DNA of 64,000 nt, from positions 1,302,001 to 1,366,000 of the forward strand of contig NZ_KV917372.1 of assembly GCF_002019635.1 (NCBI RefSeq), written 5' to 3'. A program made the position numbers and the translations under genes. Shown here one piece after another: positions 12,286 through 46,926 of this stretch (positions within the stretch are counted from its first letter, which is position 1; each line of letters opens with the position of its first letter). The stretch is from Metabacillus halosaccharovorans. Its GTDB lineage: Bacteria > Bacillota > Bacilli > Bacillales > Bacillaceae. Below the pieces are notes generated by a model that had not been told where the DNA came from, made no database searches, and was given only the letters and a program-made list of their open reading frames with translations.

Positions 12286-12333
12286 TCTTCCTCATCCCTT
12301 CTTCAATATAAATATTCCATTCAATACAACTAG

Positions 12334-14092: not shown

Positions 14093-14115
14093 CTTCTTCT
14101 GCTAAAATGTAAGGA

Positions 14116-14147
14116 GGAGATAGGAAAAGCACATAACACCTATCCCC
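14116..14147 (-). other. stem-loop between melE and melD
   Basis: GGAGATAGG (14116-14124) pairs with CCTATCCCC (14139-14147) with one mismatch, 14-base loop, 17 bases after the melE stop. There is no T run on the minus strand, so it more likely protects the 3' end of the melE message than terminates transcription. Confidence 0.55.
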
Positions 14148-14164
14148 GCCCTTTTCTGAATTAG

Positions 14165-15493
14165 TTACTCACCTTTGTGCTCAGCGATCATTGCTTTTGC
14201 TTTTTCTGCGTATTTTTCAATTGTTGTCTCAGCATCGTCTTTTCCAAGATACAACAAGTCCATGATGTCATTAGCCTCTTTATCCAATCCTGGGATTGTT
14301 GATTGGATAGCGTTTGCATAACCTTGTTCACGCGCTTGAATGATATAATCAACATGTTCAGGAACATTTGATTCTGTTACAATTTCATCAATTCCACCAA
14401 TTGATGGAATGGCATTTCCAATTCCAGCTAAACGAGCTTCTTGTCCTAATGTAGAAGTGTAATAGGATGCAAATTTTTGAGCTGCTTCTTTATTCTTTGA
14501 GTCATTGTTTACAGCCATATATGCTGTAGGGATAGCAACTGGTTCTGTTTTATTTTCAGTATTTGAAGGCCAAGAAATGTAATCCCACTCTAATGCTTTA
14601 TTTTCATGAAATAATGGAGTAAACCATCTACCGGCACTTACCATTCCTACTTGACCTGACATAAACATTGCCTCAGCTCCCTGACCCTTAGGCAATGAAC
14701 CGGAATAAGTAAAGTTCTCATCCTTCACCATTTTCTCAAGGAATTTCATTGCCTCAATTCCTTTATCATTTTGGTCTAAAATGAAATCTCCAGTCTCTTT
14801 ATTATAAACATCTCCTCCATTTGCCCAAATCCAGCTGAAAAGGGTATTCCATGAGTTATCTACAATAAAGCCATACTTACCACCATCACGTAATTGATCT
14901 GTCACTTCTTCCATTGCAGCAAAGTTCCATTCACCAGCATCAAAATATTCCTGTGGAGATTTAATCCCCAGTTCAGCTAATAACTTTTTATTGTAGTAAA
15001 GTAACATAGGGTTACAATCCACTGTTATACCATAGATCTCATCATCTTTTTTTGCAGCACCCCATAGTCCTTCTGCAAACTCATCAGGTTTAGCATAGCT
15101 TTCAGAGCTATTCATGAATTCACTTAAAGGAGCGAGCTTTCCTGTTTCCACAAGTTTAGATATGTCTCCATCACCTACATAGAATACGTCAGGAGCCTGG
15201 CTGCCTTGAAGTTGCGTTTGAAGCTTTTGGATATAACCATCACTAGGAATCGGAACAAGTTTCACCTGTATATCCGGATTCTCTTTATTAAATCCATCCA
15301 CTGCTCGTTGGTATACTTTTATTTCAGCCGGATTCCCCCATGCGGAAAATGTTAAATTAATCTTCTCACCAGATCCGGAACTTCCCGAAGCACCAGAATC
15401 TGATGAACCTGAACTTGAATTGCTACAGGCTTGTAAAGCAGGAATCATGATAAGTAAAACGGCAAACAATAAAAATGCTAGCTTCTTTTTCAT
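14165..15493 (-). CDS. melE: alpha-galactoside-binding lipoprotein MelE (MsmE)
   Basis: Solute-binding lipoprotein, 442 residues. The signal peptide begins MKKKLAFLLFAVLLIMIPALQAC, with lipobox LQAC, and is followed by a Ser/Gly-rich linker. The mature part is a family 1 sugar-binding protein. It feeds the MelD-MelC channel. I start at the ATG at 15493 because GGGGG lies 8 bases upstream; a longer frame upstream would put a hydrophilic stretch before the signal peptide. The 5' region carries a cre/LacI-type operator (15656-15669) and an 11-base inverted repeat (15707-15735). Confidence 0.9.
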   Translation of the reverse strand: MKKKLAFLLFAVLLIMIPALQACSNSSSGSSDSGASGSSGSGEKINLTFSAWGNPAEIKVYQRAVDGFNKENPDIQVKLVPIPSDGYIQKLQTQLQGSQAPDVFYVGDGDISKLVETGKLAPLSEFMNSSESYAKPDEFAEGLWGAAKKDDEIYGITVDCNPMLLYYNKKLLAELGIKSPQEYFDAGEWNFAAMEEVTDQLRDGGKYGFIVDNSWNTLFSWIWANGGDVYNKETGDFILDQNDKGIEAMKFLEKMVKDENFTYSGSLPKGQGAEAMFMSGQVGMVSAGRWFTPLFHENKALEWDYISWPSNTENKTEPVAIPTAYMAVNNDSKNKEAAQKFASYYTSTLGQEARLAGIGNAIPSIGGIDEIVTESNVPEHVDYIIQAREQGYANAIQSTIPGLDKEANDIMDLLYLGKDDAETTIEKYAEKAKAMIAEHKGE

Positions 15494-15655
15494 TACATTT
15501 ACCCCCATTTTCTTAGTGAATGAAATCCTTTTGTTATGCTGATTGAAAGCACTATTAATCAACTGGTAAACATGTCTATGTAGAACATCACCTCCTTAAA
15601 ATCAACAAGTACGTCTTCAACATGTATCATCCTCACATCCAGCGCAAAGACGTTA

Positions 15656-15669
15656 AGCAAACGCTTTCA
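15656..15669 (-). promoter_or_regulatory. cre/LacI-family operator upstream of melE
   Basis: The minus strand reads TGAAAGCGTTTGCT, matching the cre consensus except in the last bases. It follows a weak -10 (TATATG) directly. Either CcpA or MelR, itself a LacI-family protein, could bind. Confidence 0.5.
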
Positions 15670-15706
15670 TATACACACCTGCAAATTATTAATGAATATA
15701 CTTGCA

Positions 15707-15735
15707 GTAAATCTGAATTTTGAGTTCAGATTTAC
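15707..15735. repeat. 11-base perfect inverted repeat upstream of melE
   Basis: GTAAATCTGAA (15707-15717) and TTCAGATTTAC (15725-15735) with a 7-base spacer. There is no T run on either side. It may be an operator or the end of melR transcription control; the binding protein is unknown. Confidence 0.5.
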
Positions 15736-15851
15736 CAAATGTATGATTCATTTTTTAGAAATTTAACATTTTTTGAACAAACGTTTTCTTTTTTAGCAAA
15801 ACGAGAATATATGAATCTAGCAATTCTAAGCAATATCTAATATTCTCATAT

Positions 15852-17254
<1,403 letters not shown>

Positions 17255-21977: not shown

Positions 21978-22074
21978 TTTACTATAACCTCCTTAATCAG
22001 AGAGTTTTTATAAAAGAATTAGGTACCTTGTTAGTATGTCAAAACCATGATATTTTTTACATTAACAGGAAAAT

Positions 22075-22107
22075 AAAAACTCGTTTCCGTCACGGAAACG
22101 AGTTTTT
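22075..22107 (-). terminator. terminator of the CE12-PL11 gene
   Basis: A 16-base perfect inverted repeat, AAAAACTCGTTTCCGT (22075-22090) and its complement (22092-22107), forming a tight hairpin 5 bases after the stop codon with T residues on the minus strand. Confidence 0.85.
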
Positions 22108-22112
22108 ATTAA

Positions 22113-25100
22113 CTATTTCTTTAGCTCTTCAACTAAACTGATAAGGATATCTGCTTGCTCATCAGAAAAAGATTTATTTTTTTGAGCCTTTACTTGATTA
22201 ATATATGCTCCAAGTTGGCCATCTCTTGCTTTCGTTTGACCTTTTTCCTGTGACTTTTTAGCTGATTCAAGTTTCTTTACAAATGATGTTGCTGCTTTTT
22301 CCTGACCTTTTTCAGCTAAAAACTTCTTTGTTAAGTTTGCCAGATGATCATAATCTACAAAGATCTGTACTGTAATTGTTTTTTCACTCTTATTTCCGGC
22401 TTTATCAATTGCTTCTGCTGTGAACTCTGTTGGACCAACACCTAATTCGTATGCATGTTTAGTTAAGTTCTCACATGTTGTTGAGTCTAAGCCTGATAAA
22501 GAATCATCAGCTTGACATGAAAGTGAAATGATCTCATCAATCCCAATTTCTGTTTTATCTTCTAGATTAAAAAGTATATCTGGACCTGATTTGTCAATAT
22601 TCACTTTTAATTCTTGCTTTTCTTCCACATTACCTGCAGTATCTTCACTCCAGTAATGTATACTATACTTTCCTTCGTTTTTCAGTTCGATAGATGTTCC
22701 GGACTTTATATCCCCGTTATTAATTGAAAAGTAAGTCCCTTCAATTTCCGATTCATTGTCAATAGAAGTGAAGCCTAATTTCACCGTTTCTCTATACCAT
22801 CCATTTTGAGCCTCACCATCAATGTTAAAAGATGTCTCAGGTGCTGTTTCATCAGGCTTTTGTGCTGAAACAAGATATATATTTGGAGCAGGAGGTTCTT
22901 CCATTCCTTCTCCTATAAAGAAACTAGGATGCGGCGGCTGGTTATAACCAACATTTTGCCATGCAATAGCTGTTCGGTATTGCGGGTCGTTCATCAGTGT
23001 ATAAATTTTATGTTCTGTTTCATTAGTAGTCATAAAGACACGTAGCGCACTGCTATCCTCTGTTCTCCATACAGCTTCCTCTCTCCAGTCTCCAAGTATA
23101 TCTGCTTGTAATGAAGGACTGCCTTTTGTTGAATTATTAGAGTAAGTTCCATCAGCAACTAAAAGATCTTTTAGTGTTTTACTCTTATAATCCCATTTTT
23201 CAATCGTCCCTGTTCCAACACCCTTGTTGGCATCCCAATTATGATCCAACAATTCTCTTAATAAATCTCCATCCCACCATATACCGAAATTTGAAGAAGG
23301 AATCGTATCAGCTATTTTTTCTCCTGTTGCAGAGTGTAATCCCCCAACTTTACTATTCCATTCACCTGAAATCGCCCAGGCTTCTGCACCTTCGTGGGTC
23401 GGATCGATATCAGCAGTCATACCTCTACCTGTATCTTCACCGGTTTTGACTCCCCAGATAACTTCTCCCGTTTCTGCATCTCTAAGATCATATCCAAATT
23501 CCTCATCTTTATGTTCTTGAACGGAAAAGATTTCCAGACCATCCCGATTAGGATTTAGATCTCCTACATGTAATGCATCACCATGTCCTAGACCGGTATT
23601 ATAGAGTCCTGATCCATCATCATCAATTGTGATCTGACCATAAACAATTTCATCTTTTCCATCATGATCCACATCCGCTACACTAAGGCTATGATATCCT
23701 TGACCAGCCCAGTCGCTATAGCCTTCGTTGTTAGTATCAAAGGTCCATTGCTTTGTTAACTTACCTTCTTTAAAGCTATAAGCAGAAACAACTGTTCTTG
23801 TATAATATCCGCGTGCCATAATGAAACTAGGCGTTTCTCCATCAAGGTACGCAACACCGGCCAGAAAGCGGTCCACACGGTTGCCGTATCCATCTCCCCA
23901 TGAAGAAACATCACCTCTAGGAGGCGTATAATCTGTTGTCACAAGTTCCTTGCCTGATTCTCCTTCGAAGATCGTTAAATACTCAGAACCTTGTAACACA
24001 TATCCTGACGAGTTTCTGTGATCTGCATCTTCTTTTCCTATGATTGTTCCTTTACCATCCTTTGTGCCATCTGCTGTTTTCATTGCTATTTCCGATTTAC
24101 CATCTCCATCAAAATCATAAACGATAAATTGGGTATAATGAGCACCTGCACGAATATTTTCACCTAAATCAATTCTCCACAATCTTGTTCCGTCTAACTT
24201 GTATGCATCAATATAGACATTTCCTGTATAGCCGGCTTGTGAGTTATCCTTAGAATTTGACGGGTCCCATTTAAGAATAATTTCATATTCTCCATCTCCA
24301 TCTAAATCTCCAACACTTGCATCATTTGCAGAATATGTGTAAGGATCTCCTAATGGTGTAACCCCATCTTTCGGCTTTTGGAGCGGGATATCAAAAAAGT
24401 TTTCGGCAATAACTGATGTCTGATCTTTTTGTTTCTTTTCTTTGCCATCAATAACAGCTCTTACCTCATACACATCGTCTACTTTTCCTTTAGAATCCAC
24501 ATAATTGGTGCTTGAAGTAATTGGACTAGAATTGATTTTTTCACTATTACGGTAAAGATTAAATGAAACATTTTTAGAATCTGTTCCTAAAAATCTCCAC
24601 CCTATATAAACACCATCTTCTGTCTTCATCGCCACTAGACCGCGATCAAGTGTTTCCATTTGCTTTTTTAATACTGTTACAGCCGGAGTTTCAAGGCTAG
24701 TTGAAAGCTCAGAAATGCCGCCTGCACTTACAGCCGCAACTTTATAATAGTACTTAATCGTTGTTAATACCGTTTCATCTTTGTAATTTAACTTATTTGT
24801 TTTACCTATATACTGGTATTCTCCATCTTTCTTTTTTGATCTGTACACATTGTATGTTTTTGCACCATCTGTTTTGTCCCAGCTAAATGAAACGTCGTTT
24901 TTGTTTACTTCTCCAAGTTTCAAATTTTCAGGTGCAGAAGGTACTGGAACAGACGAATCAATCATTGAAACCGTTAACGGCATAGACGGAACTGTTTCAA
25001 CATTTGAACGATCAACCGTAGTTGCTGTGTATTCGTACTCCATTCCAACATCAACGTTTGTATCTGTATAAGAATTTGTATTTGCAGTACCAATTAACTC

Positions 25101-27197
25101 ACTATGACTTGTACCTGCAACTTTACGGTAAATATTATATTTCACTGCATCCTCTACCGCTTTCCATGAAAGCTGTACAGAAGAGTTTTCCGGATCAGAA
25201 TTCACCTTGTCAGCCTTTAGTTCTGAAGGAGCAAGTAAAATAGGTGTGAGCTCAAGACCATTTGCAATACCTGTTGATCCTTTAAAATTCACATTCATTT
25301 GTCCATCCTTAACAGACACATCTGAAAAGACCTTAGATGTATAATTACGGTTAGAAGCGTTTACAGGTCCTAAATCCTTCCCTTCAATGGATACATCCGT
25401 TCTCGCACTCCCAAGAAAATCAGCAACATGAACTTTTACAGCATATAACCCATTTGGTACATCTACTTGAAATTCCCACCCTACATTAAAATAACCAAGC
25501 CAATCACGTGTTACATCTCTTAAAGGTGTATCACCGTCACCACGGTCACGAGTAATCATTCCTGTATTATCTTTTATTCCATAACCTTTTTCTTTTGTAT
25601 AAACAGTATTTAAATCAACATTTGTATACCCCTCTGCAACAGGGCTACCTACCGGTCCAAAATCAAACTTAAGATTCGCTTCTTTTGTTTTAATGACAAC
25701 AATTTCCGATTGTTCAGATTCTCCCTTTGCATTAACAGCAGTTACAACTACATCATAGGATTTTCCTTCTTCCATACCCATTAAACTTATTCTGGAAATA
25801 GTAGAAGTTCCTACTAATGTATAGTCTTCATTAGGTGAAGTTGAAAGCTTACGATAAATTTTGTAAATATCGGTATTCTCCACTTCATTCCATGTTAATA
25901 CAGCTCCAGCATTACTAATACTGCTTGCCGTGATACCTGTGGGCTTGTCAGGTACATTTGCCGGTGGCTCAACGTCTGTTACGTAAGAAGCCAATGAGCT
26001 ATCTAACTCTTTAATTCCGCTAGATAATAAACGAGCTATCTGAATAGCTCCATATTCTTGAAAATGGGTATCATCCTGAGAGCCATTTGGAAAAGCAGTA
26101 TATATTCCCGGTTCCGTATGAAGGAAAACTGCTTTAGTTCCAACTGGACCAATCGTGTCATAATATTCACGACTTAATGTGCTTAAATCAACTAATTCAA
26201 CATCTAGTTCTTCTGCTACTTCTTTCATTCCTTGAACATAATCAGGAAAGCTAACATTGAATACGCCTGTCTCAGCATTAAAATCCCGTCGTCCAACAGG
26301 TGTCACTAATATTGGTTCAGCACCACGTTGTCTAGCACCATTGATATAAGTTTTTAAATAGTTTTTATAATCTGGAACAGAGGCATATCGCTCAGGCCTG
26401 CTGATTGTTGCATCATTATGACCAAATTGAATAAGGAAAAAATCTCCTGGACGTATTTCAGTCAAAATATTATCTAATCGTCCTTCAAAAATAAAAGACT
26501 TAGAGCTTCTTCCACCAATCGCATGGTTATCAAATATTATTGATTCATTGAAAAAGCGAGGAATCATTTGTCCCCAGCCTGCTTCCGGTTTCCAATATTC
26601 ATCATATGTCTGGACAGTAGAATCACCTGCAAGATAAACTGTTGGTATCTCACCCGGAACCCGCTCTGCTAATTGTGTAATAATGAGTCCATTAATCTTT
26701 GGAGTTGTTCCAGTAAACTCAAACGTTAATTGTCCATCTACCAACGCTATCGAAAATGTCCGTTCAATAAATTGTCCTGGTGATACTGTCGTATCTTGAA
26801 TCTTTTGAATCGTCTCAGCAACGACACCGATATGTGCAGATTCATTGGCATCCCCTGCAATTACTGTTACCGAATAATCACCATTTGGTAAATCCACCTG
26901 GAAACTAGTCTCTTTTGCCACAATAAAATCAGATTTTAATGCATCAGCTGTTCCTTGATCTGCAGCCTCAACATTGGAAGAATCCTTAAAACCAAATCCC
27001 GTTTCCTCACTATAAACAGAGTCGGGTGAAACTTGGTCATATCCGTCTTCTAAGGCACTGGAAGAGGTACCAAAATCATACTTTTTTGTAATTAAACTCT
27101 CCTCAGCTTTTACATTTGTCGAATAAAATGGAAGACTTCCTGCAAATAACAAAACACTTAAAAAAACGGCAAATATTTTTTGACCATTTCTTTTCAT
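22113..27197 (-). CDS. secreted rhamnogalacturonan acetylesterase-lyase fusion (CE12 + PL11)
   Basis: 1694 residues with a Sec signal peptide (to about residue 31). Order: galactose-binding-like domain (38-178); SGNH acetylesterase of CE12/RhgT type (185-400) with Ser193 in AGDS, FGHND at 258-262 and the Asp375-His378 pair in DDTH; fibronectin III (415-505); second galactose-binding-like domain (508-655); two fibronectin III domains (656-842); PL11 rhamnogalacturonan lyase of YesW type (845-1450) with repeated Ca-binding DxDGDG motifs (DLDGDGEYEI, DFDGDGKSEI, DVDHDGKDEI); Ig-like domains (1450-1610); and a C-terminal helical FIMAH-like domain. It should deacetylate and cleave the rhamnogalacturonan I backbone outside the cell. 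In Bacillus subtilis these activities are separate proteins. It is monocistronic with its own terminator and a cre-like site upstream. Confidence 0.9.
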   Translation of the reverse strand: MKRNGQKIFAVFLSVLLFAGSLPFYSTNVKAEESLITKKYDFGTSSSALEDGYDQVSPDSVYSEETGFGFKDSSNVEAADQGTADALKSDFIVAKETSFQVDLPNGDYSVTVIAGDANESAHIGVVAETIQKIQDTTVSPGQFIERTFSIALVDGQLTFEFTGTTPKINGLIITQLAERVPGEIPTVYLAGDSTVQTYDEYWKPEAGWGQMIPRFFNESIIFDNHAIGGRSSKSFIFEGRLDNILTEIRPGDFFLIQFGHNDATISRPERYASVPDYKNYLKTYINGARQRGAEPILVTPVGRRDFNAETGVFNVSFPDYVQGMKEVAEELDVELVDLSTLSREYYDTIGPVGTKAVFLHTEPGIYTAFPNGSQDDTHFQEYGAIQIARLLSSGIKELDSSLASYVTDVEPPANVPDKPTGITASSISNAGAVLTWNEVENTDIYKIYRKLSTSPNEDYTLVGTSTISRISLMGMEEGKSYDVVVTAVNAKGESEQSEIVVIKTKEANLKFDFGPVGSPVAEGYTNVDLNTVYTKEKGYGIKDNTGMITRDRGDGDTPLRDVTRDWLGYFNVGWEFQVDVPNGLYAVKVHVADFLGSARTDVSIEGKDLGPVNASNRNYTSKVFSDVSVKDGQMNVNFKGSTGIANGLELTPILLAPSELKADKVNSDPENSSVQLSWKAVEDAVKYNIYRKVAGTSHSELIGTANTNSYTDTNVDVGMEYEYTATTVDRSNVETVPSMPLTVSMIDSSVPVPSAPENLKLGEVNKNDVSFSWDKTDGAKTYNVYRSKKKDGEYQYIGKTNKLNYKDETVLTTIKYYYKVAAVSAGGISELSTSLETPAVTVLKKQMETLDRGLVAMKTEDGVYIGWRFLGTDSKNVSFNLYRNSEKINSSPITSSTNYVDSKGKVDDVYEVRAVIDGKEKKQKDQTSVIAENFFDIPLQKPKDGVTPLGDPYTYSANDASVGDLDGDGEYEIILKWDPSNSKDNSQAGYTGNVYIDAYKLDGTRLWRIDLGENIRAGAHYTQFIVYDFDGDGKSEIAMKTADGTKDGKGTIIGKEDADHRNSSGYVLQGSEYLTIFEGESGKELVTTDYTPPRGDVSSWGDGYGNRVDRFLAGVAYLDGETPSFIMARGYYTRTVVSAYSFKEGKLTKQWTFDTNNEGYSDWAGQGYHSLSVADVDHDGKDEIVYGQITIDDDGSGLYNTGLGHGDALHVGDLNPNRDGLEIFSVQEHKDEEFGYDLRDAETGEVIWGVKTGEDTGRGMTADIDPTHEGAEAWAISGEWNSKVGGLHSATGEKIADTIPSSNFGIWWDGDLLRELLDHNWDANKGVGTGTIEKWDYKSKTLKDLLVADGTYSNNSTKGSPSLQADILGDWREEAVWRTEDSSALRVFMTTNETEHKIYTLMNDPQYRTAIAWQNVGYNQPPHPSFFIGEGMEEPPAPNIYLVSAQKPDETAPETSFNIDGEAQNGWYRETVKLGFTSIDNESEIEGTYFSINNGDIKSGTSIELKNEGKYSIHYWSEDTAGNVEEKQELKVNIDKSGPDILFNLEDKTEIGIDEIISLSCQADDSLSGLDSTTCENLTKHAYELGVGPTEFTAEAIDKAGNKSEKTITVQIFVDYDHLANLTKKFLAEKGQEKAATSFVKKLESAKKSQEKGQTKARDGQLGAYINQVKAQKNKSFSDEQADILISLVEELKK

Positions 27198-27275
27198 AAG
27201 TTTACTACCTCTCCTTCTCGATAATAGTCACCTTATGTTTCATCTTGATGAGAACCTTCCTCCTTTCTATCATTT

Positions 27276-27289
27276 TGAAAACCCTTACA
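27276..27289 (-). promoter_or_regulatory. cre-like site upstream of the CE12-PL11 gene
   Basis: The minus strand reads TGTAAGGGTTTTCA, one mismatch (central C to G) from the cre consensus. It lies about 80 bases upstream of the start codon. The mismatch is in the conserved CG core, so binding is uncertain. Confidence 0.4.
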
Positions 27290-27414
27290 AATTTAAATGA
27301 TAATATTTGTCAGAATTTTTAGATATATAAATATCAGACATAAACGTATAAAAAACCGATATTCGCTTCATATGAACGACATTTCCATTATTAATAGAGT
27401 TAAAAACAAAAAAT

Positions 27415-27431
27415 CCCACTACTAGAGTGGG
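27415..27431 (-). terminator. terminator of the hydrolase-GNAT operon
   Basis: CCCACT (27415-27420) and AGTGGG (27426-27431) with a 5-base loop, followed on the minus strand by ATTTTTTG. It lies 13 bases after the stop codon. Confidence 0.8.
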
Positions 27432-27444
27432 AAATTCTTTTCTT

Positions 27445-30347: not shown

Positions 30348-32726
30348 CTATTTTGTTTTTGCTAATTCAACTATTTCATCTGCAGATATTGAACCTCTGT
30401 AAATTCTTAGTTCATCCATAAGCCCTTTATATGGCGTATCCCACCAATTGACTCCTAAACTGAATACTCCATTTGTTGTTGTGAACACATGTGGAAAATC
30501 AGTCCCTTTAAATGTTTCTTTTCCATTCACATAAACAGTAATTGTACCTTGCTTCACCGTAAATGCAAGATGTGCCCATTTATTTGGTTGAATTGACTGG
30601 CCTGTATTGGCATCATACCAATTTGTTCCTGCCCAAACCATCGTATGATGACTTACCCCGGAATGCCCCTTGGGTACCAGGCTGATCCAATGATTCGAAT
30701 CTCTTGCACCAAAAAATGCGGTTGTATATTCAGTTAGCGCATCGGGTTTTAACCATAGCGCAACCGAATATGAATCACTATCAATTAAACCATCTGGTAA
30801 TCGAATTCCTGATTGCCCATTAAACTTCACTGACCTTCCAAACTCAGTTTCAATATAATCGATAATGCCACCACTGTTGTCTACTCTGTCACCAGTTATG
30901 ATTCCTTCTTTATCTTTTTGTGTACTGTCCGATAAATTCCCTTCAAATTTATAATGTGCGACAATACCATTTGGTTTTTGGGGCAAAATTGTGATCGTGA
31001 ATTGTTTTTGAGTAGATACATCACCTTTTGCGATCGTTGCCGTCAAGGTCAGGGTTACCGGGTCTTTTCCAGCTTCTGGTCTTGTAATGACTCCTTTATC
31101 TGTCATTACATCATGATTCGATGATACCCATGTAATAGTCGTTCCTCTTGTTCCTTCAATTGGAAGAGTTACATTACTCATTATATTGCTTGTATCTCCC
31201 AAATTCAGATCTGCCTTTACATCCTCTATGATTTCCTGATCTGTTCTATCTTTCGTTTTACTTCCCCAAAGGGCTATACCCTCTTTTGAAAGGACACTAA
31301 ATGTCATCACATGATCTTGTGCTACTTCATCCCACTGACGTAAAAATATACCACTATACACTTTTCCACCTATTTTTAGCTCGGCATTGTAATGCCCTGT
31401 TTTCTTCCAAGTTCCATTTAAACTTCCGCTGATTTTGTTGTTTTTCTCAAGTGTTATAGACACCGGCTTTTTCACTTCAGCTGATATATCTTTTTCATGG
31501 TTAATCATTTGATAGGTTCCGATAACATTGTCCCTTTTTATCTTTTCAATTGTTTCCCCTGCAAAACGATACGGTGCGATAACAGGCCAGCCATTTTTAT
31601 TCATAAACATTTGGTGAACGCGAATTTCATGATGTTCACCTTTTTCTGGAAAACGTGTATGGAAGATGATAAATTGCTTGCCTGTTTTTGAATCATAGTA
31701 AGTTGAATTATGGCCTGGCGAGACATAGCCAGCACCAATCCCTTCTCCCGGATCCCCGATCTTTCGTTCGAACAAATGATTACCCATTAACTTAACGGCA
31801 TAGGGTTCAATTGATTTATCATCAAATAATGGTACAGTTGGATCTGCTTTTACATTGATCATCTCATTTCCTTCGGCATCATAATAAGGTCCATCCGGTT
31901 TTTTTGAACGAATGACTCTTACATTGTAACCACCAGTCGCGTCCAGCCCTCCAAAAGATAGGTACATATAATAATAGTTTGTATCAGGGTGATATTGAAT
32001 GTATGCCCCTTCAATTCTACTATGATTTCCACCTATCAGCTTCTTCCCATAACCTTGATCCGGTAACGGGAACCCTGTTTTTGGATCCATTTCTAAAATA
32101 AAAATTCCACCTGAGTATGATCCGTACAACATCCAAAGCTTCCCCTTTTCATCAAAAAATGTATCAGGGTCTACAACATTAGGATGCTTAGTAGCATCAT
32201 AGATTGTTCCGTCTTCACTCGGTTCTCCCCACATTCCTGATTTTAAGAAAATTCCTTTGTCCTTATACGGTCCTTCAATATTATCAGCAACCGCAATACC
32301 TAAAGCAGATCTTGGTGAATCTCCTTTACATGCATTGTAATACATATAAAACTTTCCATCCTCAAGCTGAATAACATCCGCTGCCCAAAGTGTATCTGTT
32401 TGTGCCCAATCAAATGTATCCTTTAATTCCTTTACTACATCCTCAAACAATGGATTTGTCACATTTGCACCAGAAGCTACAAGTTCCCAATTCATCAAGT
32501 CTTTGGATTTTGCTGCTGCTAAATGAGACCCGAACACATAGTAATCATTTTGTACTTTTATAATAGAAGGATCATGAACAGATGCATTTGTAAATTTAGG
32601 TTTATCTGCTGTATTCACCTTTTGATTCATCATTTTTTTCTCCTTGGTTGTATCTGCCTCCATGGCGATCACTAAGGTTGGAATCATAATCACAAACACT
32701 AGTAAAACTAGCCATTTTTTCACCAT
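30348..32726 (-). CDS. secreted GH43 endo-1,5-alpha-L-arabinanase
   Basis: 792 residues with a signal peptide (first 21 residues). Residues 45-400 are a GH43 five-bladed propeller, with catalytic Asp52 (VHDPSII), an Asp in VVDPDTF (186/188) and Glu239 (RIEGAYI). A beta domain (about 400-490), an Ig-like domain (about 500-590, TWVSSNHDVMTDKGVITRP), and a C-terminal LamG-like domain (about 595-790, VALWLKPDALTEYTT, ELRIYRGSISADEIVEL) follow. The arrangement resembles Abn2 (YxiA) of Bacillus subtilis with extra modules. It would cut arabinan side chains of pectin outside the cell and feed the arabino-oligosaccharide importer encoded upstream. A strong terminator separates it from that operon, so it is transcribed on its own. 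AGGAGAGGG precedes the ATG. Confidence 0.88.
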   Translation of the reverse strand: MVKKWLVLLVFVIMIPTLVIAMEADTTKEKKMMNQKVNTADKPKFTNASVHDPSIIKVQNDYYVFGSHLAAAKSKDLMNWELVASGANVTNPLFEDVVKELKDTFDWAQTDTLWAADVIQLEDGKFYMYYNACKGDSPRSALGIAVADNIEGPYKDKGIFLKSGMWGEPSEDGTIYDATKHPNVVDPDTFFDEKGKLWMLYGSYSGGIFILEMDPKTGFPLPDQGYGKKLIGGNHSRIEGAYIQYHPDTNYYYMYLSFGGLDATGGYNVRVIRSKKPDGPYYDAEGNEMINVKADPTVPLFDDKSIEPYAVKLMGNHLFERKIGDPGEGIGAGYVSPGHNSTYYDSKTGKQFIIFHTRFPEKGEHHEIRVHQMFMNKNGWPVIAPYRFAGETIEKIKRDNVIGTYQMINHEKDISAEVKKPVSITLEKNNKISGSLNGTWKKTGHYNAELKIGGKVYSGIFLRQWDEVAQDHVMTFSVLSKEGIALWGSKTKDRTDQEIIEDVKADLNLGDTSNIMSNVTLPIEGTRGTTITWVSSNHDVMTDKGVITRPEAGKDPVTLTLTATIAKGDVSTQKQFTITILPQKPNGIVAHYKFEGNLSDSTQKDKEGIITGDRVDNSGGIIDYIETEFGRSVKFNGQSGIRLPDGLIDSDSYSVALWLKPDALTEYTTAFFGARDSNHWISLVPKGHSGVSHHTMVWAGTNWYDANTGQSIQPNKWAHLAFTVKQGTITVYVNGKETFKGTDFPHVFTTTNGVFSLGVNWWDTPYKGLMDELRIYRGSISADEIVELAKTK

Positions 32727-32760
32727 ACATCCCTCTCCTATCTTTTAACTTCAAAAAAAA

Positions 32761-32813
32761 TAGAAGATCACTACGTTAAATCTTCATTAACATTCATAAG
32801 TAGTGATCTTCTA
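32761..32813 (-). terminator. terminator of the arabino-oligosaccharide operon
   Basis: A perfect 14-base inverted repeat, TAGAAGATCACTAC (32761-32774) and its complement (32800-32813), followed on the minus strand by eight T residues. Confidence 0.85.
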
Positions 32814-32819
32814 AAGTTG

Positions 32820-33089
32820 TTACCATTTTGGTCCATTTGGATGTGGACATTGTTTATATGATAGTTTTGTTCGAAATTCCACATAACACCCGCAATGTAA
32901 ACATGTTGTTTCACTTGAAAGAGAAGGACAGCTTAAACAGATGTCCATTCTCTTTTGATACAGCGAATCATTCACTAAATTGATTTCAAGCTCTAGTTGC
33001 TCTTGAACTAGCTTAGAAATTTGTGGTTTTGATCTATGTTCAACCTGGAAACAGCCTTTACAGTTTCTTTTTGATTCTATTTCTATCAT
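32820..33089 (-). CDS. small cysteine-rich protein (DUF6171-like)
   Basis: 89 residues with cysteines arranged as CKGC near the N-terminus, then [20 protein letters not shown] and a final CPHPNGPKW. The pattern suggests one or two zinc sites and matches small Bacillus proteins of the DUF6171 type, of unknown role. Its ATG overlaps the abfA stop codon by 4 bases (ATGA), so it is translationally coupled to abfA and closes the arabinan operon. It is not an obvious carbohydrate protein; the coupling is notable. Confidence 0.75.
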
Positions 33090-34576
33090 GATGCTGTTAT
33101 TAAAAGAACTGACATAGGCGGTATTTCAAATGACAGTTCATTCTCATTTACATTTAATCCTTCAAATACAGCAGGTTCTACAGCATTTGGATCTTCAAAT
33201 GTATTTCTGTCATTCATATTTTCAGATGTTAAAATTTTCCCTCTAACCTGTGTCACATTTTTATCTAGTAAACCTCTTAATTCAATTGTTACAGGTGCTG
33301 AGTCCTGATTGCTTACATTACATAATGTAATATTCACTTCACCTTTCGTATTTTTTGAAGCTGATAGATGAACAGAAGGGATTTCTTCTTCCTTCCCCTT
33401 AAATGTTGATGTTGCAGCTTCAACCGTTAGACAAGCAGCATCTTGATGAACCTTATACATATCAAAAACATGATAAGTCGGAGTTAAAATCATATTTTCT
33501 CCTTCTGTTAAGACCATTGCTTGAAGAACGTTTACTGTTTGGGCAATGTTAGCCATTTGGACACGATCACAATGGTTGTTAAAAATATTTAGGGTAATAC
33601 TCGCTACAAGCGCATCACGAATCGTATTTTGTTGATATAAAAACCCCGGATTTGTACCAGGCTCTACATCAAACCATGTGCCCCATTCATCTACAATCAT
33701 GCCCACTCGTTTTTCCGGATCATATTTATCCATGATCGTACCATGTTTTGTTACAAGCTCATCCATATGTAGAGCCTTTTTCATCGTAGTGAACCATTCA
33801 TCTTCAGTAAAGTCTGTTGCAGAGCCTTTCCCTAACCAAAAGTCACCTGGAATTGTATAGTAATGAAGGCTTAACCCATCCATAAAACGACCTGCAGTAC
33901 GCATTAACACTTCTGTCCAGTTATAGTCGTCTACATTTGCTCCTCCGGCAATTTTGTAAATTTTATTATCTCCATAGTTTCTTACATAGGTCTGGAATTG
34001 GCGATAAAGATCTGCATAATATTCGGGACGCATATTTCCACCACAGCCCCAGTTTTCATTACCTACTCCGAAATAAGTTAATTTCCATGGTTCTTCTCGG
34101 CCATTTTCACTTCTCCAGTTAGCCATTGGAGATTCTCCATCAAATGTCATATATTCAACCCATTCTGACATTTCCTGAACTGTTCCGCTTCCAACATTCC
34201 CGCAAATATATGGCTCACACTCCAGTAACTCACAAAGAAGCATAAATTCATGTGTACCGAAATGGTTGTTTTCTACAACTCCACCCCAGTGGGTATTAAC
34301 CATTCTTTTTCTGTTTTCTCGCGGACCAACACCATCTTTCCAATGATACTCATCAGCAAAACAGCCACCCGGCCAGCGTAGTACTGGAATATTTAAATTT
34401 TTTAGCGCTTGAAGAACATCATTCCGAATTCCTTTTGTGTTAGGAATAGCAGAATCTTCTCCCACCCAAATTCCTTCATAAATACAACGCCCAAGATGTT
34501 CTGCGAAGTGCCCGTAAATATTTTTATTTATTTTTCCCTTTTCAATATCTGCATTGATAATAATTGAATTACCCAT
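33086..34576 (-). CDS. abfA: intracellular alpha-L-arabinofuranosidase, GH51
   Basis: 496 residues, no signal peptide. The acid/base is Glu174 in GVGNENWG and the nucleophile is Glu297 in IVDEWGTW, at the positions expected for GH51 enzymes. It removes terminal arabinose from arabino-oligosaccharides taken up by the importer upstream. The ATG at 34576 lies eight bases after AGGAG; a GTG three codons upstream overlaps that site. It lies 28 bases after the GH43 gene. The closest known parallels are AbfA of Bacillus subtilis and Geobacillus. Confidence 0.93.
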
Positions 34577-34604
34577 TTCAATCACTCCTACACTATTAGT
34601 CTAT

Positions 34605-35573
34605 TTATTTTTTACTAACTTCACGATCCGGAACAGGGTTTCCGAATACAGGTAGTCCATCTTCTCTCCAAGTAAACACCTGTGCACGTGTATGACGATT
34701 TGGATCGTATAATGGATCACCTTCAATCTCTTTATAATTTCTTGCATGATACACCATTACATCTTCATTTCCATCCTCTGAAACCGTAAAACTATTATGC
34801 CCAGGGCCATATTGACCTGTTTGCTCATTTGTTTGGAAAACAGGTTCAGTTAATTTAGTCCATGAAGCCGGATTCAGTAAGTCTGCATCCGCAGAGGCAT
34901 ACAATAACCCCATACAATAATGATGATTTGTCGCACTAGCTGAAAAGGAAACAATAATTTTTCCATTTCGCTTTAATACAGCAGGACCTTCATTAACGAG
35001 GAATCCTATTTTTTCCCAATCATATTCAGGAGTTGTAATCATCACTTGTTCACCTGTAATTGTCCAAGGATTTTCCATCTTTGCGATATATAAATTAGAA
35101 TTACCTTTAATGCCCGGATCTTTCTGAGGCCAAATAAGATAACGCACGCCTTTATGCTCAAAGGTTGTTGCATCAAGAGCAAATGTTTCCCATTTTGTTT
35201 TAATCTGGCCTTTTTCTTCCCATGTTCCTTCTAAAGGATTTGCCGACTTATTTTCAAGCACATACATACGATGATCAAATAATCCTTCATTTGTTTCAGC
35301 TGTTCTAGCTGCGGCAAAATAAATGTACCAAGCTCCATCGATATAATGAATTTCAGGTGCCCAAATATTCGCACTCATCGGACCACGATCATATTTTCTC
35401 CAAGCCACAACAGGCTCTGCCTCTCCTAAACCTTGAATAGTGGTTGCTCTGCGAACTTCAATACGATCATATTCAGGGACAGATGCAGTAAAGTAATAAT
35501 AGCCATCAACATGCTTATATACCCAAGGGTCTGCACGCTGATCAATAATTGGATTTTGATACTTATTTGACAT
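34605..35573 (-). CDS. intracellular GH43 arabinosidase
   Basis: 322 residues without a signal peptide. It has the GH43 propeller start QNPIIDQRADPWVYKHVDGYYYFTAS, the second acidic site around ALDATTFEHKGVRYLIWP, and a catalytic Glu candidate in FLVNEGPAVLK. The pattern is nearest to GH43 exo-alpha-1,5-L-arabinofuranosidases. It would shorten imported arabino-oligosaccharides together with the GH51 enzyme encoded next. AAGGAGAG precedes the ATG. It is 28 bases downstream of the importer permease. Specificity (arabinose versus xylose) is inferred from the operon. Confidence 0.85.
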   Translation of the reverse strand: MSNKYQNPIIDQRADPWVYKHVDGYYYFTASVPEYDRIEVRRATTIQGLGEAEPVVAWRKYDRGPMSANIWAPEIHYIDGAWYIYFAAARTAETNEGLFDHRMYVLENKSANPLEGTWEEKGQIKTKWETFALDATTFEHKGVRYLIWPQKDPGIKGNSNLYIAKMENPWTITGEQVMITTPEYDWEKIGFLVNEGPAVLKRNGKIIVSFSASATNHHYCMGLLYASADADLLNPASWTKLTEPVFQTNEQTGQYGPGHNSFTVSEDGNEDVMVYHARNYKEIEGDPLYDPNRHTRAQVFTWREDGLPVFGNPVPDREVSKK

Positions 35574-35601
35574 AATAAACTCTCCTTTTCCGGAAAACTA
35601 T

Positions 35602-36465
35602 TTATCCTTTAATTCCAGTCATTGTAATCCCTTCTATAAATTGCTTTTGAGCAAAGAAGAACATAAGAATTGTTGGGATTAGCGCTAATACGGACCCGGC
35701 CATAATGAGTGTCCATTCTGATGTATAATAACCATTAAAGGATGCCAATACCAATTGAAGTGTAAACTTTTCAGGCGTATTAATGTAAATTAATGGTCCA
35801 AGGAAATCATTATATCCAGCCAAAAACCATAAAATAGCTTGTGTGACAATTGCCGGCTTTGCCAACGGTAAAATGATTCTGATAAAAATTCCAAAATAAC
35901 CTAAACCATCGATTTTCGCAGCCTCTATTAATTCATCAGGAATGGTCATAAAAAACTGTCTTAGAAAAAAGATTGCCATTGCCGTACCAAACATTCCCGG
36001 TATAATTAATGGCATCCACGTGTCCAGCCAACCTAAATCTCTAAAAATGATAAAAGTCGGTACCATCGTAACAACACCTGGCAGCATAATTGTCGCTAAA
36101 AGAACGAGAAATAACTTATCCCTTCCTGGAAACTTTAATTTCGAAAACCCAAATGCTGCTAATGAGCTTGTAAACACCCCGATTACAGTAGGCGGGATAA
36201 TGACCGCAAACGTATTCATAAAACCTCTTAACAAATTTGCTTCAGTTAAAACTGTCCAATAATTCTCCCAAACAAACTTTTCAGGAATCCATTGAGGAGG
36301 CATTGTAAAAACTGCCCCTTCCGGCTTTAGGGACGTTGATAACATCCAGAAAAATGGTATAGCCATAATAAAACCACCAATAATTAAAAACACATATGCA
36401 GCGATCTTTTGAATGAGTCGTATGTTCTTTACGTTTTTATTCCAAGCAACACTTGTCGCAGACAT
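35602..36465 (-). CDS. araQ: arabino-oligosaccharide ABC importer permease (AraQ-like)
   Basis: MalG-type permease, 287 residues, six predicted membrane segments, with the EAA loop ELIEAAKIDGLGYFGI near residue 185 and the C-terminal IEGITMTGIKG. I choose the ATG at 36465, nine bases after AAGGAA; a GTG three codons earlier would directly abut the ribosome site. It follows the partner permease by 16 bases. No ATPase gene is present in the operon. The substrate is inferred from the arabinosidase genes downstream; the symbol is by analogy with araNPQ. Confidence 0.82.
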   Translation of the reverse strand: MSATSVAWNKNVKNIRLIQKIAAYVFLIIGGFIMAIPFFWMLSTSLKPEGAVFTMPPQWIPEKFVWENYWTVLTEANLLRGFMNTFAVIIPPTVIGVFTSSLAAFGFSKLKFPGRDKLFLVLLATIMLPGVVTMVPTFIIFRDLGWLDTWMPLIIPGMFGTAMAIFFLRQFFMTIPDELIEAAKIDGLGYFGIFIRIILPLAKPAIVTQAILWFLAGYNDFLGPLIYINTPEKFTLQLVLASFNGYYTSEWTLIMAGSVLALIPTILMFFFAQKQFIEGITMTGIKG

Positions 36466-36481
36466 ATTCTTCACTTCCTTA

Positions 36482-37408
36482 TTAATAATGAACCCAACGT
36501 TTACTTAGTTTAAAATTAATTAATGTAATGATTAAGATAATAATTCCTAATACCCAAGCCATTGCTGATGCATAGCCCATTTCCATGTAACGGAATGCAT
36601 TTAGGAATAAGTAGTAAACAACAGTCGTTGTGGAATAATTCGGACCACCTTCAGTCATGATCATAAATCGTTGGAAATCCTGAAGAGCTCCAATGATAGA
36701 GGTAATCAGAATAAAGAATGTTGTCGGTGATATAGATGGAATCGTGACAAACCTTAACTTTTGCCAAATGTTAGCTCCATCGATATCTGCTGCTTCGTAA
36801 AGATTTTTTGGTACAGACTGAAGTGCTGCTAAATATAAAATCATATTGATTCCCAATCCGCCCCAAACACCTTGAATAATCATTGCAGGCATCGCCCAAT
36901 TTTCATCACTCAGCCAAGGCGGCCCTGTAATGCCGATATAACCAAGCAGGACATTTAATAATCCGAAATCCGAGTTAAAAATCCATTTCCACAGCAAAGA
37001 TATTGCAACGATGGAGCACACTGTTGGTAGAAAAAAGGCTGTTCGAAACAAAGATAGTCCCTTTACTTTCTGGTTTAAAGCTATGGCAATAAACAAAGCA
37101 ATCACCATACCAAAAGGAATTCCTAATGCAGCATAAAATGTATTAAAAACTGTCTTCCAAAACAAATCATCTTCAAAAAATAATCTCTTGTAGTTTTCTA
37201 AACCATTGAATTGAGCTGGTGTATATAAATCAAACTTTGTAAAACTGACGTAAACGGAAAATAACATTGGGATAAAAGCAAAGCAGAGAAATCCAATTAA
37301 AGGCGGGGCAACAAACAAGTATCCCCACATATATTCTGATTTGAATCTTCTTTTCTTCTTCACGTTTATCTCAGCTTTCTTCGTCTTTGTTGCTGTCTGC
37401 GTTATCAT
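36482..37408 (-). CDS. araP: arabino-oligosaccharide ABC importer permease (AraP-like)
   Basis: MalF-type permease, 308 residues, starting with a basic cytoplasmic tail (KKKRRFKSE) and containing six membrane segments and the EAA loop LYEAADIDGANIWQKL. The C-terminus FKLSKRWVHY is the same as in MelD-type permeases. AAAGGGTG lies before the ATG. A stem-loop separates it from the binding-protein gene. Forms the channel with the AraQ-like subunit. Confidence 0.82.
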   Translation of the reverse strand: MITQTATKTKKAEINVKKKRRFKSEYMWGYLFVAPPLIGFLCFAFIPMLFSVYVSFTKFDLYTPAQFNGLENYKRLFFEDDLFWKTVFNTFYAALGIPFGMVIALFIAIALNQKVKGLSLFRTAFFLPTVCSIVAISLLWKWIFNSDFGLLNVLLGYIGITGPPWLSDENWAMPAMIIQGVWGGLGINMILYLAALQSVPKNLYEAADIDGANIWQKLRFVTIPSISPTTFFILITSIIGALQDFQRFMIMTEGGPNYSTTTVVYYLFLNAFRYMEMGYASAMAWVLGIIILIITLINFKLSKRWVHY

Positions 37409-37442
37409 GTTATCACCCTTTCTATCACAGATATTTCAAACC

Positions 37443-37475
37443 TAGAGGGGAATGTACAAATTCATTTCCCCTCTA
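37443..37475 (-). other. stem-loop between araN-like and araP-like genes
   Basis: TAGAGGGGAA (37443-37452) pairs perfectly with TTCCCCTCTA (37466-37475), loop of 13 bases, 11 bases after the binding-protein stop codon. There is no long T run. This is the third sugar operon in the window with a hairpin in the same place. Confidence 0.7.
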
Positions 37476-37486
37476 TACGCAGTGTG

Positions 37487-38836
37487 TTACTCAAAAATTG
37501 CTGGATTACCCTCTTTTAAATGCTTATCTACCTCAGGCTTAATTTCATTTAATAGTTCTTCAGCTGATTTTTTTCCATTCCAAAGGTCAGCAAGCTTTTG
37601 ATTGACTGTATCAAGCCATTTGTTATTTGTCGTCATTGACCATGGACCCGGGCGCTGATTTTCTGCAGCTTGAATAAACACTTCAGGATTTTTAGGTTTT
37701 TGACCAGGCTGTAAGAATACATCTGTATTTGATAATGATTTATAAGTTGGAATAGCAAATCCTAATTCTGTTTGAATGGTTTGTCCTTCTTCACCAGCTA
37801 AATATTCTACTAATCTAAAGGACTCATCTACAAATTTTGTTTTCTTATTAATGGCGTATCCTACTGAACCTGACCAACCAGATGATTCACCGGTTTTTCC
37901 AGCTGGGAAAGGAGCAACATTCCAATCGAAGTTCAATTTACGATATGTTGGTACCATCCAGCGACCATTGAAGACCATTGCCACTTTACCTGATTCAAAC
38001 ATTTGATCTGCTGACATCGCTTCCAAAGCACGGGAATCAGGAGCGACATTGTGCTTATTTGACATATCTGCAACAAATTGCATCGCTTCAACTGCTTCCG
38101 GACTGTTTAACACAAATTCTTTTCGATCTTCACTTAAAACATTACCACCATTTGACCAAACAAATCCTTCCCACCATAGTGGCCCCATACCATATTGCTC
38201 AGGCTTGCCGTCACCATTTTCATCAATTGTTAATTTTTTCGCAATTTCTATATATTCCTCCCAGCTCATTGGTTTCTCAGGTGATGGATAAGGAATACCC
38301 GCTTTATCGAAAAGTTCTTTATTGTAATATAAAACAGAAGGTCCAATATCCTTAGGTAAAGCGTATAAGTCACCCTCTCCTAATGTTTTTCCATTGTATT
38401 TATATCGAACTAATGCTGATTCCCACATATCATCAGTGTTAATGTCACTGTTATCGATCAATTCCTGCATATTTAAAAATAAGTCTGCAGATACCCATCT
38501 ACCAAAGTCACCGTCACTAGCAAAAACAACATCAGGTGCTGTTCCACCAGCAAGCATTGTATTCATCTTTCCTGCATAATCATCTGGAATATGTGTAACT
38601 TTAACCTTAATATCCGGGTTATCTTCTTCGAAATTACTTACTAATTCTTTAAATACTTTCAATTCATCCGGAGATCCCCAAGTTGAAATCCCAATTGTTG
38701 TTGTGCCATCTTCATTTTTTCCGGATTGTGTTGCTGAATCGCCACCATTTTCAGAACCTGTAAATGCTGAACAGCCTATTAAACTACCAAATAGCATCAT
38801 AGCAATTCCTAAAGAAATCAATTTCTTAACAAACAT
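37487..38836 (-). CDS. araN: arabino-oligosaccharide-binding lipoprotein (AraN-like)
   Basis: Family 1 solute-binding lipoprotein, 449 residues, signal peptide with lipobox LIGC near residues 20-23. It captures oligosaccharides for the AraP/AraQ-like permeases. The ATG at 38836 follows AGGGGG; a TTG five codons upstream is inside the ribosome binding site. It is first in the operon binding protein - permease - permease - GH43 - GH51 - small cysteine protein, transcribed from a sigma-A promoter at 38871-38898 with a cre-like site over the start point. The divergent ArsR-type gene is the likely regulator. No araABD genes lie in the window. Confidence 0.85.
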   Translation of the reverse strand: MFVKKLISLGIAMMLFGSLIGCSAFTGSENGGDSATQSGKNEDGTTTIGISTWGSPDELKVFKELVSNFEEDNPDIKVKVTHIPDDYAGKMNTMLAGGTAPDVVFASDGDFGRWVSADLFLNMQELIDNSDINTDDMWESALVRYKYNGKTLGEGDLYALPKDIGPSVLYYNKELFDKAGIPYPSPEKPMSWEEYIEIAKKLTIDENGDGKPEQYGMGPLWWEGFVWSNGGNVLSEDRKEFVLNSPEAVEAMQFVADMSNKHNVAPDSRALEAMSADQMFESGKVAMVFNGRWMVPTYRKLNFDWNVAPFPAGKTGESSGWSGSVGYAINKKTKFVDESFRLVEYLAGEEGQTIQTELGFAIPTYKSLSNTDVFLQPGQKPKNPEVFIQAAENQRPGPWSMTTNNKWLDTVNQKLADLWNGKKSAEELLNEIKPEVDKHLKEGNPAIFE

Positions 38837-38856
38837 GTTAATCCCCCTCAATTTTT

Positions 38857-46119: not shown

Positions 46120-46124
46120 ACTGA

Positions 46125-46198
<74 letters not shown>

Positions 46199-46230
46199 AT
46201 ATTTTGTTATTCCTTGCATTTCCATAAGAA

Positions 46231-46305
46231 TGGCTCCGCAGGCAGGACTCGAACCTGCGACCGATCGGTTAACAGCCGATAGCTCTACCACTGAGCTACT
46301 GCGGA
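46231..46305 (-). tRNA. tRNA-Asn (GTT)
   Basis: Acceptor TCCGCAG, anticodon loop CTGTTAA, T loop GTTCGAG; CCA encoded. Confidence 0.93.
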
Positions 46306-46314
46306 ACACTATCA

Positions 46315-46391
<77 letters not shown>

Positions 46392-46416
46392 ATTTTTTTA
46401 TCGAAATATGTATGTA

Positions 46417-46490
46417 TGGAGCGGGTGAAGGGAATCGAACCCTCATCATCAGCTTGGAAGGCTGAGGTTTTACCACTAAACTACACCCGC
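46417..46490 (-). tRNA. tRNA-Gly (TCC)
   Basis: Acceptor GCGGGTG/CACCCGC, anticodon loop CTTCCAA; CCA encoded. Confidence 0.93.
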
Positions 46491-46503
46491 ATATTAAATG
46501 TTT

Positions 46504-46577
46504 TGGAGGCACCACCCGGATTTGAACCGGGGATAGAGGTTTTGCAGACCTCGGCCTTACCACTTGGCTATGATGCC
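46504..46577 (-). tRNA. tRNA-Cys (GCA)
   Basis: Acceptor GGCATCA/TGGTGCC with one G-T pair, anticodon loop CTGCAAA; CCA encoded. Confidence 0.92.
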
Positions 46578-46583
46578 TCAAAA

Positions 46584-46916: not shown

Positions 46917-46926
46917 ATGGTTTTCT

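What the first reader, a model, noticed from the sequence alone, without database searches (positions are those of the whole stretch)
22113..27197. One secreted polypeptide carries both rhamnogalacturonan acetylesterase and lyase
The sequence shows an SGNH/CE12 domain with a complete Ser193, Asn261, Asp375, His378 set, and a full PL11 lyase with its DxDGDG calcium motifs, in one 1694-residue protein with two galactose-binding-like, three fibronectin III, Ig-like and FIMAH-like modules. In Bacillus subtilis these are separate proteins (YesT and YesW/YesX). Removing acetyl groups and cutting the backbone in one protein may let it process acetylated pectin without a separate esterase. That no other rhamnogalacturonan genes lie nearby suggests it stands alone, or feeds genes elsewhere.
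Basis: partly seen in the sequence, partly recalled or inferred. Interest (0 to 1): 0.72.

Follow-up and report, generated by a model that had tools for sequence, protein, structure and literature searches.

The report
Secreted pectin esterase-lyase fusion enzyme
This bacterium encodes one large secreted enzyme that should both strip acetyl groups from, and cut, the rhamnose-rich backbone of plant pectin; such fusions are already described in print, but this one looks like a chain-end cutter controlled together with the main pectin-uptake genes.

Summary
Window 22113-27197 (-) is one intact 1694-residue ORF: GBD, SGNH/CE12, FN3, GBD, FN3, FN3, PL11, OmpL47-type and Ig-like modules, weak FIMAH. 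The esterase residues S193, N261, D375, H378 and the PL11 residues checked are intact. The fusion is neither new nor rare: it is in print as a prediction (50 CE12:PL11 proteins including a Metabacillus one; Paenibacillus and ruminococcal ones), and I found it in 14 of 21 genomes of the genus and in other Bacillaceae, Paenibacillaceae, Nonomuraea and Lachnospiraceae. It does not stand alone. Arabinan genes lie 3 kb upstream, and the same genome has a yes-type RG-I locus with separate CE12 and PL11 genes. A promoter repeat found three times in the genome (pattern search, up to 3 mismatches) lies before the fusion and twice at that locus, so I place it in the same regulon. The PL11 domain carries the insertion seen in YesX and absent from YesW; all 64 fusion rows scored (63 distinct) have it, against 22 of 55 PL11s without CE12. 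I therefore expect an exo-acting lyase whose tethered esterase clears acetyl groups. Activity is untested, and the loop association is not significant after allowing for relatedness. Verdict: new member of a known kind.

The parts
22113..27197 (-). CE12-PL11 fusion gene, 1694 aa
27102..27197 (-). signal peptide, about residues 1-32 (judged by eye)
   Evidence: positive start, hydrophobic core, VKA/EE; no predictor run
26721..27083 (-). GBD1, galactose-binding-like (PF21254), residues 39-159
26028..26639 (-). SGNH/CE12 acetylesterase domain, residues 187-390; S193, N261, D375, H378
25695..25949 (-). FN3-1, residues 417-501
25233..25682 (-). GBD2, about residues 506-655, YxiM-type
   Evidence: (second PF21254 stretch)
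24954..25232 (-). FN3-2, about residues 656-748
24684..24947 (-). FN3-3, about residues 751-838
22884..24665 (-). PL11 rhamnogalacturonan lyase domain, residues 845-1438
23337..23378 (-). insertion loop at the YesX position, residues 1274-1287 (WAISGEWNSKVGGL)
22596..22784 (-). OmpL47-type domain, residues 1472-1534
22314..22577 (-). Ig/HYR-like module, about residues 1541-1628
   Evidence: HYR below cut-off here; 17 of 18 tails match at E<=0.1
22122..22298 (-). FIMAH-like tail, residues 1634-1692 (weak)
27320..27359 (-). tandem direct repeat, candidate operator shared with the yes-type locus
27276..27289 (-). cre-like site TGTAAGGGTTTTCA, one mismatch to the consensus used (consensus recalled)
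27205..27243 (-). 12-codon leader ORF (MKHKVTIIEKER) just before the gene
   Evidence: also in near-identical L005; not looked for systematically elsewhere
27414..27432 (-). terminator-like hairpin upstream of the gene
   Evidence: consensus match
22072..22110 (-). terminator-like hairpin after the gene, 18 pairs
   Evidence: consensus match
30348..38851 (-). arabinan cluster: AbnB-type GH43, GH51-type arabinofuranosidase, GH43, two permeases, solute-binding protein (neighbour; not conserved beside other fusions)

Best explanation
A secreted two-enzyme chain for acetylated rhamnogalacturonan I, with no wall-anchor domain recognised. The N-terminal CE12 domain removes acetyl esters from the backbone; the C-terminal PL11 propeller cuts the Rha-GalA backbone by beta-elimination, most likely working from a chain end (YesX-like) rather than at random; the galactose-binding-like and FN3 modules hold both on the same chain. 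Products go to the yes-type ABC uptake system encoded elsewhere in the genome, with which the gene shares a promoter repeat. Shown: intact ORF, domains, invariant residues, predicted fold, shared repeat, loop length. Inferred: both activities, secretion, exo mode, the activator and the order of action.
For: Domains and homologues. CE12 residues S, N, D, H in 60 of 60 fused rows and 24 of 24 rows without PL11. Seven PL11 residues, matched by motif to those PMC8787155 names for carboxyl, ring or Ca contacts, invariant in 59 of 59 fused and 35 of 35 PL11-only rows. AlphaFold2 model of residues 28-842, pLDDT 90.7, pTM 0.74; best PDB match YxiM 2o14, and 1deo with TM 0.80 by target length. Promoter repeat: one matrix hit in the window; three pattern hits in the whole genome, the other two at the yes-type locus. 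In 21 genus genomes 13 of 14 fusion genes have the repeat 126-162 nt before the match start, and the 14th is cut off by a contig end. YesX-type loop in 64 of 64 fusion rows scored (59, 5; 63 distinct) against 22 of 55 PL11-only rows.
Against: No activity data. The loop is matched by position and length; its sequence differs from YesX, and 15 of the 64 fusion rows lack the second YesX insertion (13, 2). The loop-fusion association is not significant once relatedness is counted: 4 independent pairs on supported branches, on average 2.6 the same way, 0 opposite, 1.4 without difference. That the YesX loop causes exo cutting is recalled (Ochiai et al. 2009, not held). CE12 also contains enzymes acting on other pectins or xylan (PMC10483417 passage). 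Seventeen of the 55 genus sites of the repeat are not near a listed PL11 gene.
Confidence: 0.72

Rival explanations
1. The PL11 domain is an endo-lyase like YesW, and the fusion simply raises the local concentration of two generic pectin activities.
For: Nearly equal scores to 4cag, YesX and YesW (874.5, 874.2, 851.4 bits); 4cag has the short loop; loop sequence differs from YesX.
Against: The window has both YesX insertions (14 and 18 residues between anchors; YesX 15 and 16, YesW 6 and 8). The genome already has a short-loop PL11 in its yes-type locus.
Confidence: 0.3
2. The CE12 domain deacetylates another wall polymer (homogalacturonan, xylan) rather than RG-I, and the chain is a general wall-loosening enzyme.
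For: The only NCBIfam esterase hit is pectin acetylesterase PaeY, far below its cut-off (61.3 bits against 1000); CE12 substrates vary.
Against: Match to RG acetylesterase 1deo; the fused CE12s form their own lineage tied to PL11.
Confidence: 0.15
3. The esterase half is a vestige kept only as a spacer.
For: Some PL11 relatives nested among the fusions lack CE12.
Against: S, N, D, H invariant in 60 of 60 fused rows.
Confidence: 0.04

Closest known systems
HUW50_16055 of Metabacillus sp. KUDC1714, one of 50 CE12:PL11_1 proteins (PMC10483417, passages read)
   Same: Same order CE12 - beta-sandwich module - PL11; conserved triad and Ca sites reported there; probably the same genus (G002 has the coordinates of Metabacillus crassostreae L006)
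   Different: The paper calls the middle module CBM35; at roughly that place the window has a YxiM-type GBD. The passages read hold no promoter or loop analysis. Uncharacterised there too.
Pamy_4308 of Paenibacillus amylolyticus 27C64, PL11|CE12|CBM37 (PMC6339884, passages read)
   Same: 5.2 kb gene, both catalytic families, signal peptide
   Different: CBM37 call; predicted only
PL11-Doc-CBM35-CE12 (R. flavefaciens) and PL11-CE12-CBM13-CBM13-CBM37 (R. albus) (PMC4081043, table passages)
   Same: Both activities in one chain
   Different: Opposite order, dockerin or CBM37
YesX and YesW of Bacillus subtilis (PDB 2zuy, 2z8r)
   Same: PL11 over the whole domain; YesX shares the insertion position
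   Different: Stand-alone lyases
YxiM of B. subtilis (2o14) and fungal RG acetylesterase (1deo)
   Same: GBD+SGNH architecture; catalytic blocks
   Different: No lyase attached

Membership tests
PL11 rhamnogalacturonan lyase | N-terminal beta-sheet and RGL11 propeller domains above curated cut-offs | tested here: met
   PF18370 118.4 bits (cut-off 27.8), PF21348 841.3 bits (cut-off 27)
PL11 rhamnogalacturonan lyase | Substrate and Ca residues named in PMC8787155 (two His, Asp, Glu, Arg, Lys, Tyr) | tested here: met
   H1169, H1205, D1207, E1222, R1258, K1358, Y1418; 59 of 59 fused rows; equivalence assigned by motif
PL11 rhamnogalacturonan lyase | Unsaturated product formation | not testable with these tools
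   needs assay
Exo-acting PL11 (YesX type) | Insertion at YesX 439-447 | tested here: met
   14 residues between anchors against YesX 15, YesW 6; role of the loop recalled
Exo-acting PL11 (YesX type) | Chain-end mode of cutting | not testable with these tools
   needs assay
CE12 rhamnogalacturonan acetylesterase | SGNH Ser, Asn, Asp, His | tested here: met
   60 of 60 fused rows
CE12 rhamnogalacturonan acetylesterase | SGNH block II Gly | tested here: met
   G228 and G229 present and invariant in fused rows or in alignment A1; which of the two acts was not determined, and the G228 column is Gly in only 8 of 24 CE12-only rows
CE12 rhamnogalacturonan acetylesterase | Fold like 1deo / 2o14 | tested here: met
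CE12 rhamnogalacturonan acetylesterase | Acetyl release from RG-I | not testable with these tools
   needs assay
PaeY pectin acetylesterase | NCBIfam equivalog cut-off (1000 bits) | tested here: not met
   61.3 bits
FIMAH domain | Pfam cut-off 24.8 bits | tested here: not met
   11.2 bits whole protein, 15.1 bits tail alone; 15 of 18 tails of A2 match at E<=0.1
yes-type RG-I regulon | Shared promoter repeat | tested here: met
yes-type RG-I regulon | Binding and activation by the regulator | not testable with these tools
   needs gel shift and expression data

The most novel reading that the evidence does not exclude
CE12 is joined in one chain to chain-end-acting PL11 lyases and not to endo ones: an exo-lyase that walks along RG-I stalls at each acetylated galacturonate, so it carries its own esterase to clear the path, a coupling that an endo enzyme does not need. 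The same rule would hold in both fusion layouts (CE12 first; PL11 first).
Probability: 0.35. Interest if true: 0.6.

Novelty: new member of a known kind. Interest (0 to 1): 0.33.

Why it matters
RG-I is a poorly understood part of pectin and its acetylation limits enzymatic breakdown (general knowledge). I found no assay of a CE12-PL11 fusion in searches of the open library, and PMC10483417 says that none is characterised. The loop pattern turns 'why fuse them?' into a direct test: remove the loop or the esterase and follow chain-end release on acetylated and deacetylated RG-I. The promoter repeat gives a handle for finding other RG-I genes in Bacillales.

Tried and rejected
Sequencing error or joined frames: rejected. 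Rare or unique fusion: rejected. Operon with the arabinan genes: not supported; terminator-like hairpins bound the gene, and outside the near-identical L005 only single arabinan-type genes were found in the flanks of other fusions, in L014, L026 and L038 (flanks of at most 10 kb). Separate origin of the canonical fusion in Lachnospiraceae: not supported, since their CE12 joins the other fused CE12s; these trees are quick searches on a sample chosen by similarity to the window protein, drawn from the midpoint. One clade of fused PL11s: rejected by the AU test (p 1.3e-05). Significance of the loop-fusion association after relatedness: not reached. CBM35 identity of the middle module: by sequence its only PDB match below E 0.01 is YxiM; no CBM35 profile was tested. 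Literature search listed 20 of 1,090 papers, none on this enzyme. The second structure job was not used.

Full report
What is there. The reverse strand of 22113-27197 encodes one 1694-residue protein without a stop. Pfam and NCBIfam give, in order, a galactose-binding-like domain (PF21254), an SGNH esterase, an FN3 domain, a second PF21254-type domain, two more FN3-like domains, a complete PL11 lyase, an OmpL47-type domain, and an Ig/HYR-like plus FIMAH-like tail that are weak in this protein. The signal peptide was judged by eye. A model of residues 28-842 from 38 aligned relatives reached pLDDT 90.7 and pTM 0.74; its best solved match is YxiM, and the fungal RG acetylesterase matches with TM 0.80 by target length. 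The PL11 part matches YesX, YesW and 4cag over its whole length.

How common it is. A scan of bacterial genomes found at least 558 relatives of the query and kept the best 79 loci. With single-sequence domain searches, which can miss divergent domains, I counted 60 fused ORFs, 35 PL11-only and 24 CE12-only in the window, these 79 loci and 13 further stretches of its own and genus genomes; 54 of the 60 are in the 79 loci. They come from Bacillaceae, Paenibacillaceae, Nonomuraea, Clostridium, Lachnospiraceae and one MAG labelled Gastranaerophilales. In the window's own genus 14 of 21 genomes hold the fusion, one of them (G016) with a TGA inside the match. In an even draw of 398 genomes of the phylum, 26 hold PL11 by the Pfam profile. 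I searched 19 of the other 25 with the whole protein and read 20 stretches from 16 of these 19. Fusions were seen in six of the 20 genomes so examined: the window's own and two more in the canonical order, and three Paenibacillaceae-type genomes (coded f4) in the opposite order, PL11-GBD-CE12-GBD-CE12-OmpL47. The six genomes not followed up had only weak matches.

What is already in print. PMC10483417 (passages read) reports 50 CE12:PL11 proteins, models a Metabacillus one, notes its conserved triad and Ca sites, speculates on synergy and says none is characterised. PMC6339884 (passages) lists a PL11|CE12|CBM37 protein. PMC4081043 (table passages) lists PL11-Doc-CBM35-CE12 and PL11-CE12-CBM13-CBM13-CBM37. 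So both orders are published as predictions. Searches found no assay of such a fusion in the open library; most subscription papers are not covered.

Where it belongs. The gene is bounded by terminator-like hairpins at 27432-27414 and 22110-22072, so it is probably transcribed alone. An arabinan cluster begins 3.15 kb upstream (AbnB-type GH43 at 806 bits against a cut-off of 750, a GH51-type arabinofuranosidase, GH43, ABC transporter), but this neighbourhood is not conserved next to other fusions. The same genome carries, about 180-200 kb away, a yes-type locus with two PL11 genes, a CE12 gene, GH42, a GH88-family (PF07470) hydrolase, DUF624, two solute-binding proteins, two permeases, an AraC-type response regulator and a histidine kinase. 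Aligning the leaders of 21 fusion genes showed a tandem repeat of about CTGTTTTTTAAAC spaced 21 nt; 19 of the 21 also have a cre-like match with at most two mismatches, whose chance rate was not tested. A matrix trained on 15 of them, chosen by eye and without the window, scores the window promoter 35.1 bits; no other site in the window reached 12, and four random 64-kb sequences gave at most 11.3. The same matrix hits the yes-type locus at 29.1, 25.2 and 16.6 bits and, in the next stretch, 23.9 bits. A pattern search of the whole genome with up to three mismatches gave three sites (one match for the reversed control pattern): this promoter and two at the yes-type locus; one of these two lies before a 124-aa ORF of unknown role next to the kinase gene.

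Over 1.97 Mb of loci the matrix gave 52 hits at 15 bits or more. The site lies within about 430 nt before the fusion ORF in 32 of 54 fused genome-contig loci; 15 of these are training loci, so 17 of 39 held out (some of them near copies of training loci or of the window), or 17 of 26 if the 13 non-Bacillales loci, none of them hit, are left out. In the 21 genus genomes the pattern gave 55 sites against 5 for the reversed control: 13 before fusion genes at 126-162 nt, 12 within 600 nt before other PL11 matches, 13 within 20 kb of a PL11 match, 17 with no listed PL11 match within 20 kb. Several of these genomes supplied training leaders, so the fusion hits are partly by construction; the other PL11 hits are not. 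The one fusion without a site, in G018, starts 55 nt from the end of its contig, and a site pointing off the start of another contig (C111:342-376) may be its missing promoter. PMC3870299 (passages) says RhgR controls rhamnogalacturonan genes in Bacillales; that this repeat is the operator of RhgR or of the YesN-like regulator is my inference.

Endo or exo. In the alignment to solved enzymes the window has AISGEWNSKVGG where YesX has its PPGNDGMSY stretch, by count at chain positions 439-447, and YesW and 4cag have a gap. I recall from Ochiai et al. 2009 that this loop blocks one side of the YesX cleft and makes it exo; the paper could not be read. Measured between fixed anchors, the window has 14 residues, YesX 15, YesW and 4cag 6. 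All 59 fused rows scored (58 distinct) have 13-26; of 35 PL11-only rows 17 are long and 18 short. Five further fusions, three in opposite order, all have 16; of 20 further PL11-only rows 5 are long and 15 short. Total 64 of 64 against 22 of 55. Against this: relatedness leaves only four supported independent pairs, on average 2.6 agreeing and none opposing, the 35 PL11-only rows were picked by similarity to the fusion, and 15 of the 64 fusions lack the second YesX insertion.

History. Fused CE12 domains and five stand-alone rows (four distinct proteins) nested among them form one set (SH-aLRT 95; with the opposite-order proteins, 97). The nested stand-alone copies lie directly upstream of the fusion in L011/L087, L086 and L088 and have their own hydrophobic N-terminus: the esterase domain seems to have been copied out. 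On the PL11 tree fused and unfused are mixed (six changes; one clade rejected), which fits repeated loss of the esterase part or exchange. The opposite-order PL11s form their own fully supported group outside the set that holds the Bacillales and Nonomuraea fusions (96); their place relative to the Lachnospiraceae fusions is unresolved. This suggests, but does not prove, a separate joining event.

Conclusion. A member of a published but, as far as I could search, uncharacterised enzyme type. New here, as far as searches show, are its placement in the RG-I regulon and the observation that every fusion scored carries the YesX-type loop, which gives a concrete, unproven reason for the fusion.

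Noticed in passing
27205-27243 (-): A 12-codon leader ORF after a strong-looking ribosome site ends just before the fusion start; also in near-identical L005; not looked for systematically elsewhere.
   Followed up: partly
L089 (G015:C128:98000-104500): A genome without the fusion keeps a fusion-type stand-alone CE12 close to an ORF that matches only the fusion's C-terminal 1467-1694: looks like a deletion remnant.
   Followed up: no
L094 (G016): The fusion match in this genome holds one in-frame TGA; the open ORF begins inside GBD1. Not examined further.
   Followed up: no
L100, L101, L102: Proteins of 2132-2150 aa with PL11 first and two CE12 domains after it, same OmpL47-type tail module.
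   Followed up: partly
10963-16916: GH4 protein (alpha-galactosidase-type model above cut-off), ABC transporter and a LacI-family regulator nearest EbgR but below its cut-off: another sugar-use unit.
   Followed up: no
46123-48852: Cluster of 22 tRNA genes, all on the minus strand.
   Followed up: no
49992-50759: Erythromycin-esterase family protein (PF05139), matching only the first 201 of 358 profile positions.
   Followed up: no
own genome C1:1056045-1056827 and C2:1876868-1877518: The fusion's C-terminal module recurs at about 36% identity in two other large ORFs of the same genome (1214 and 2040 aa): a shared tail module.
   Followed up: no
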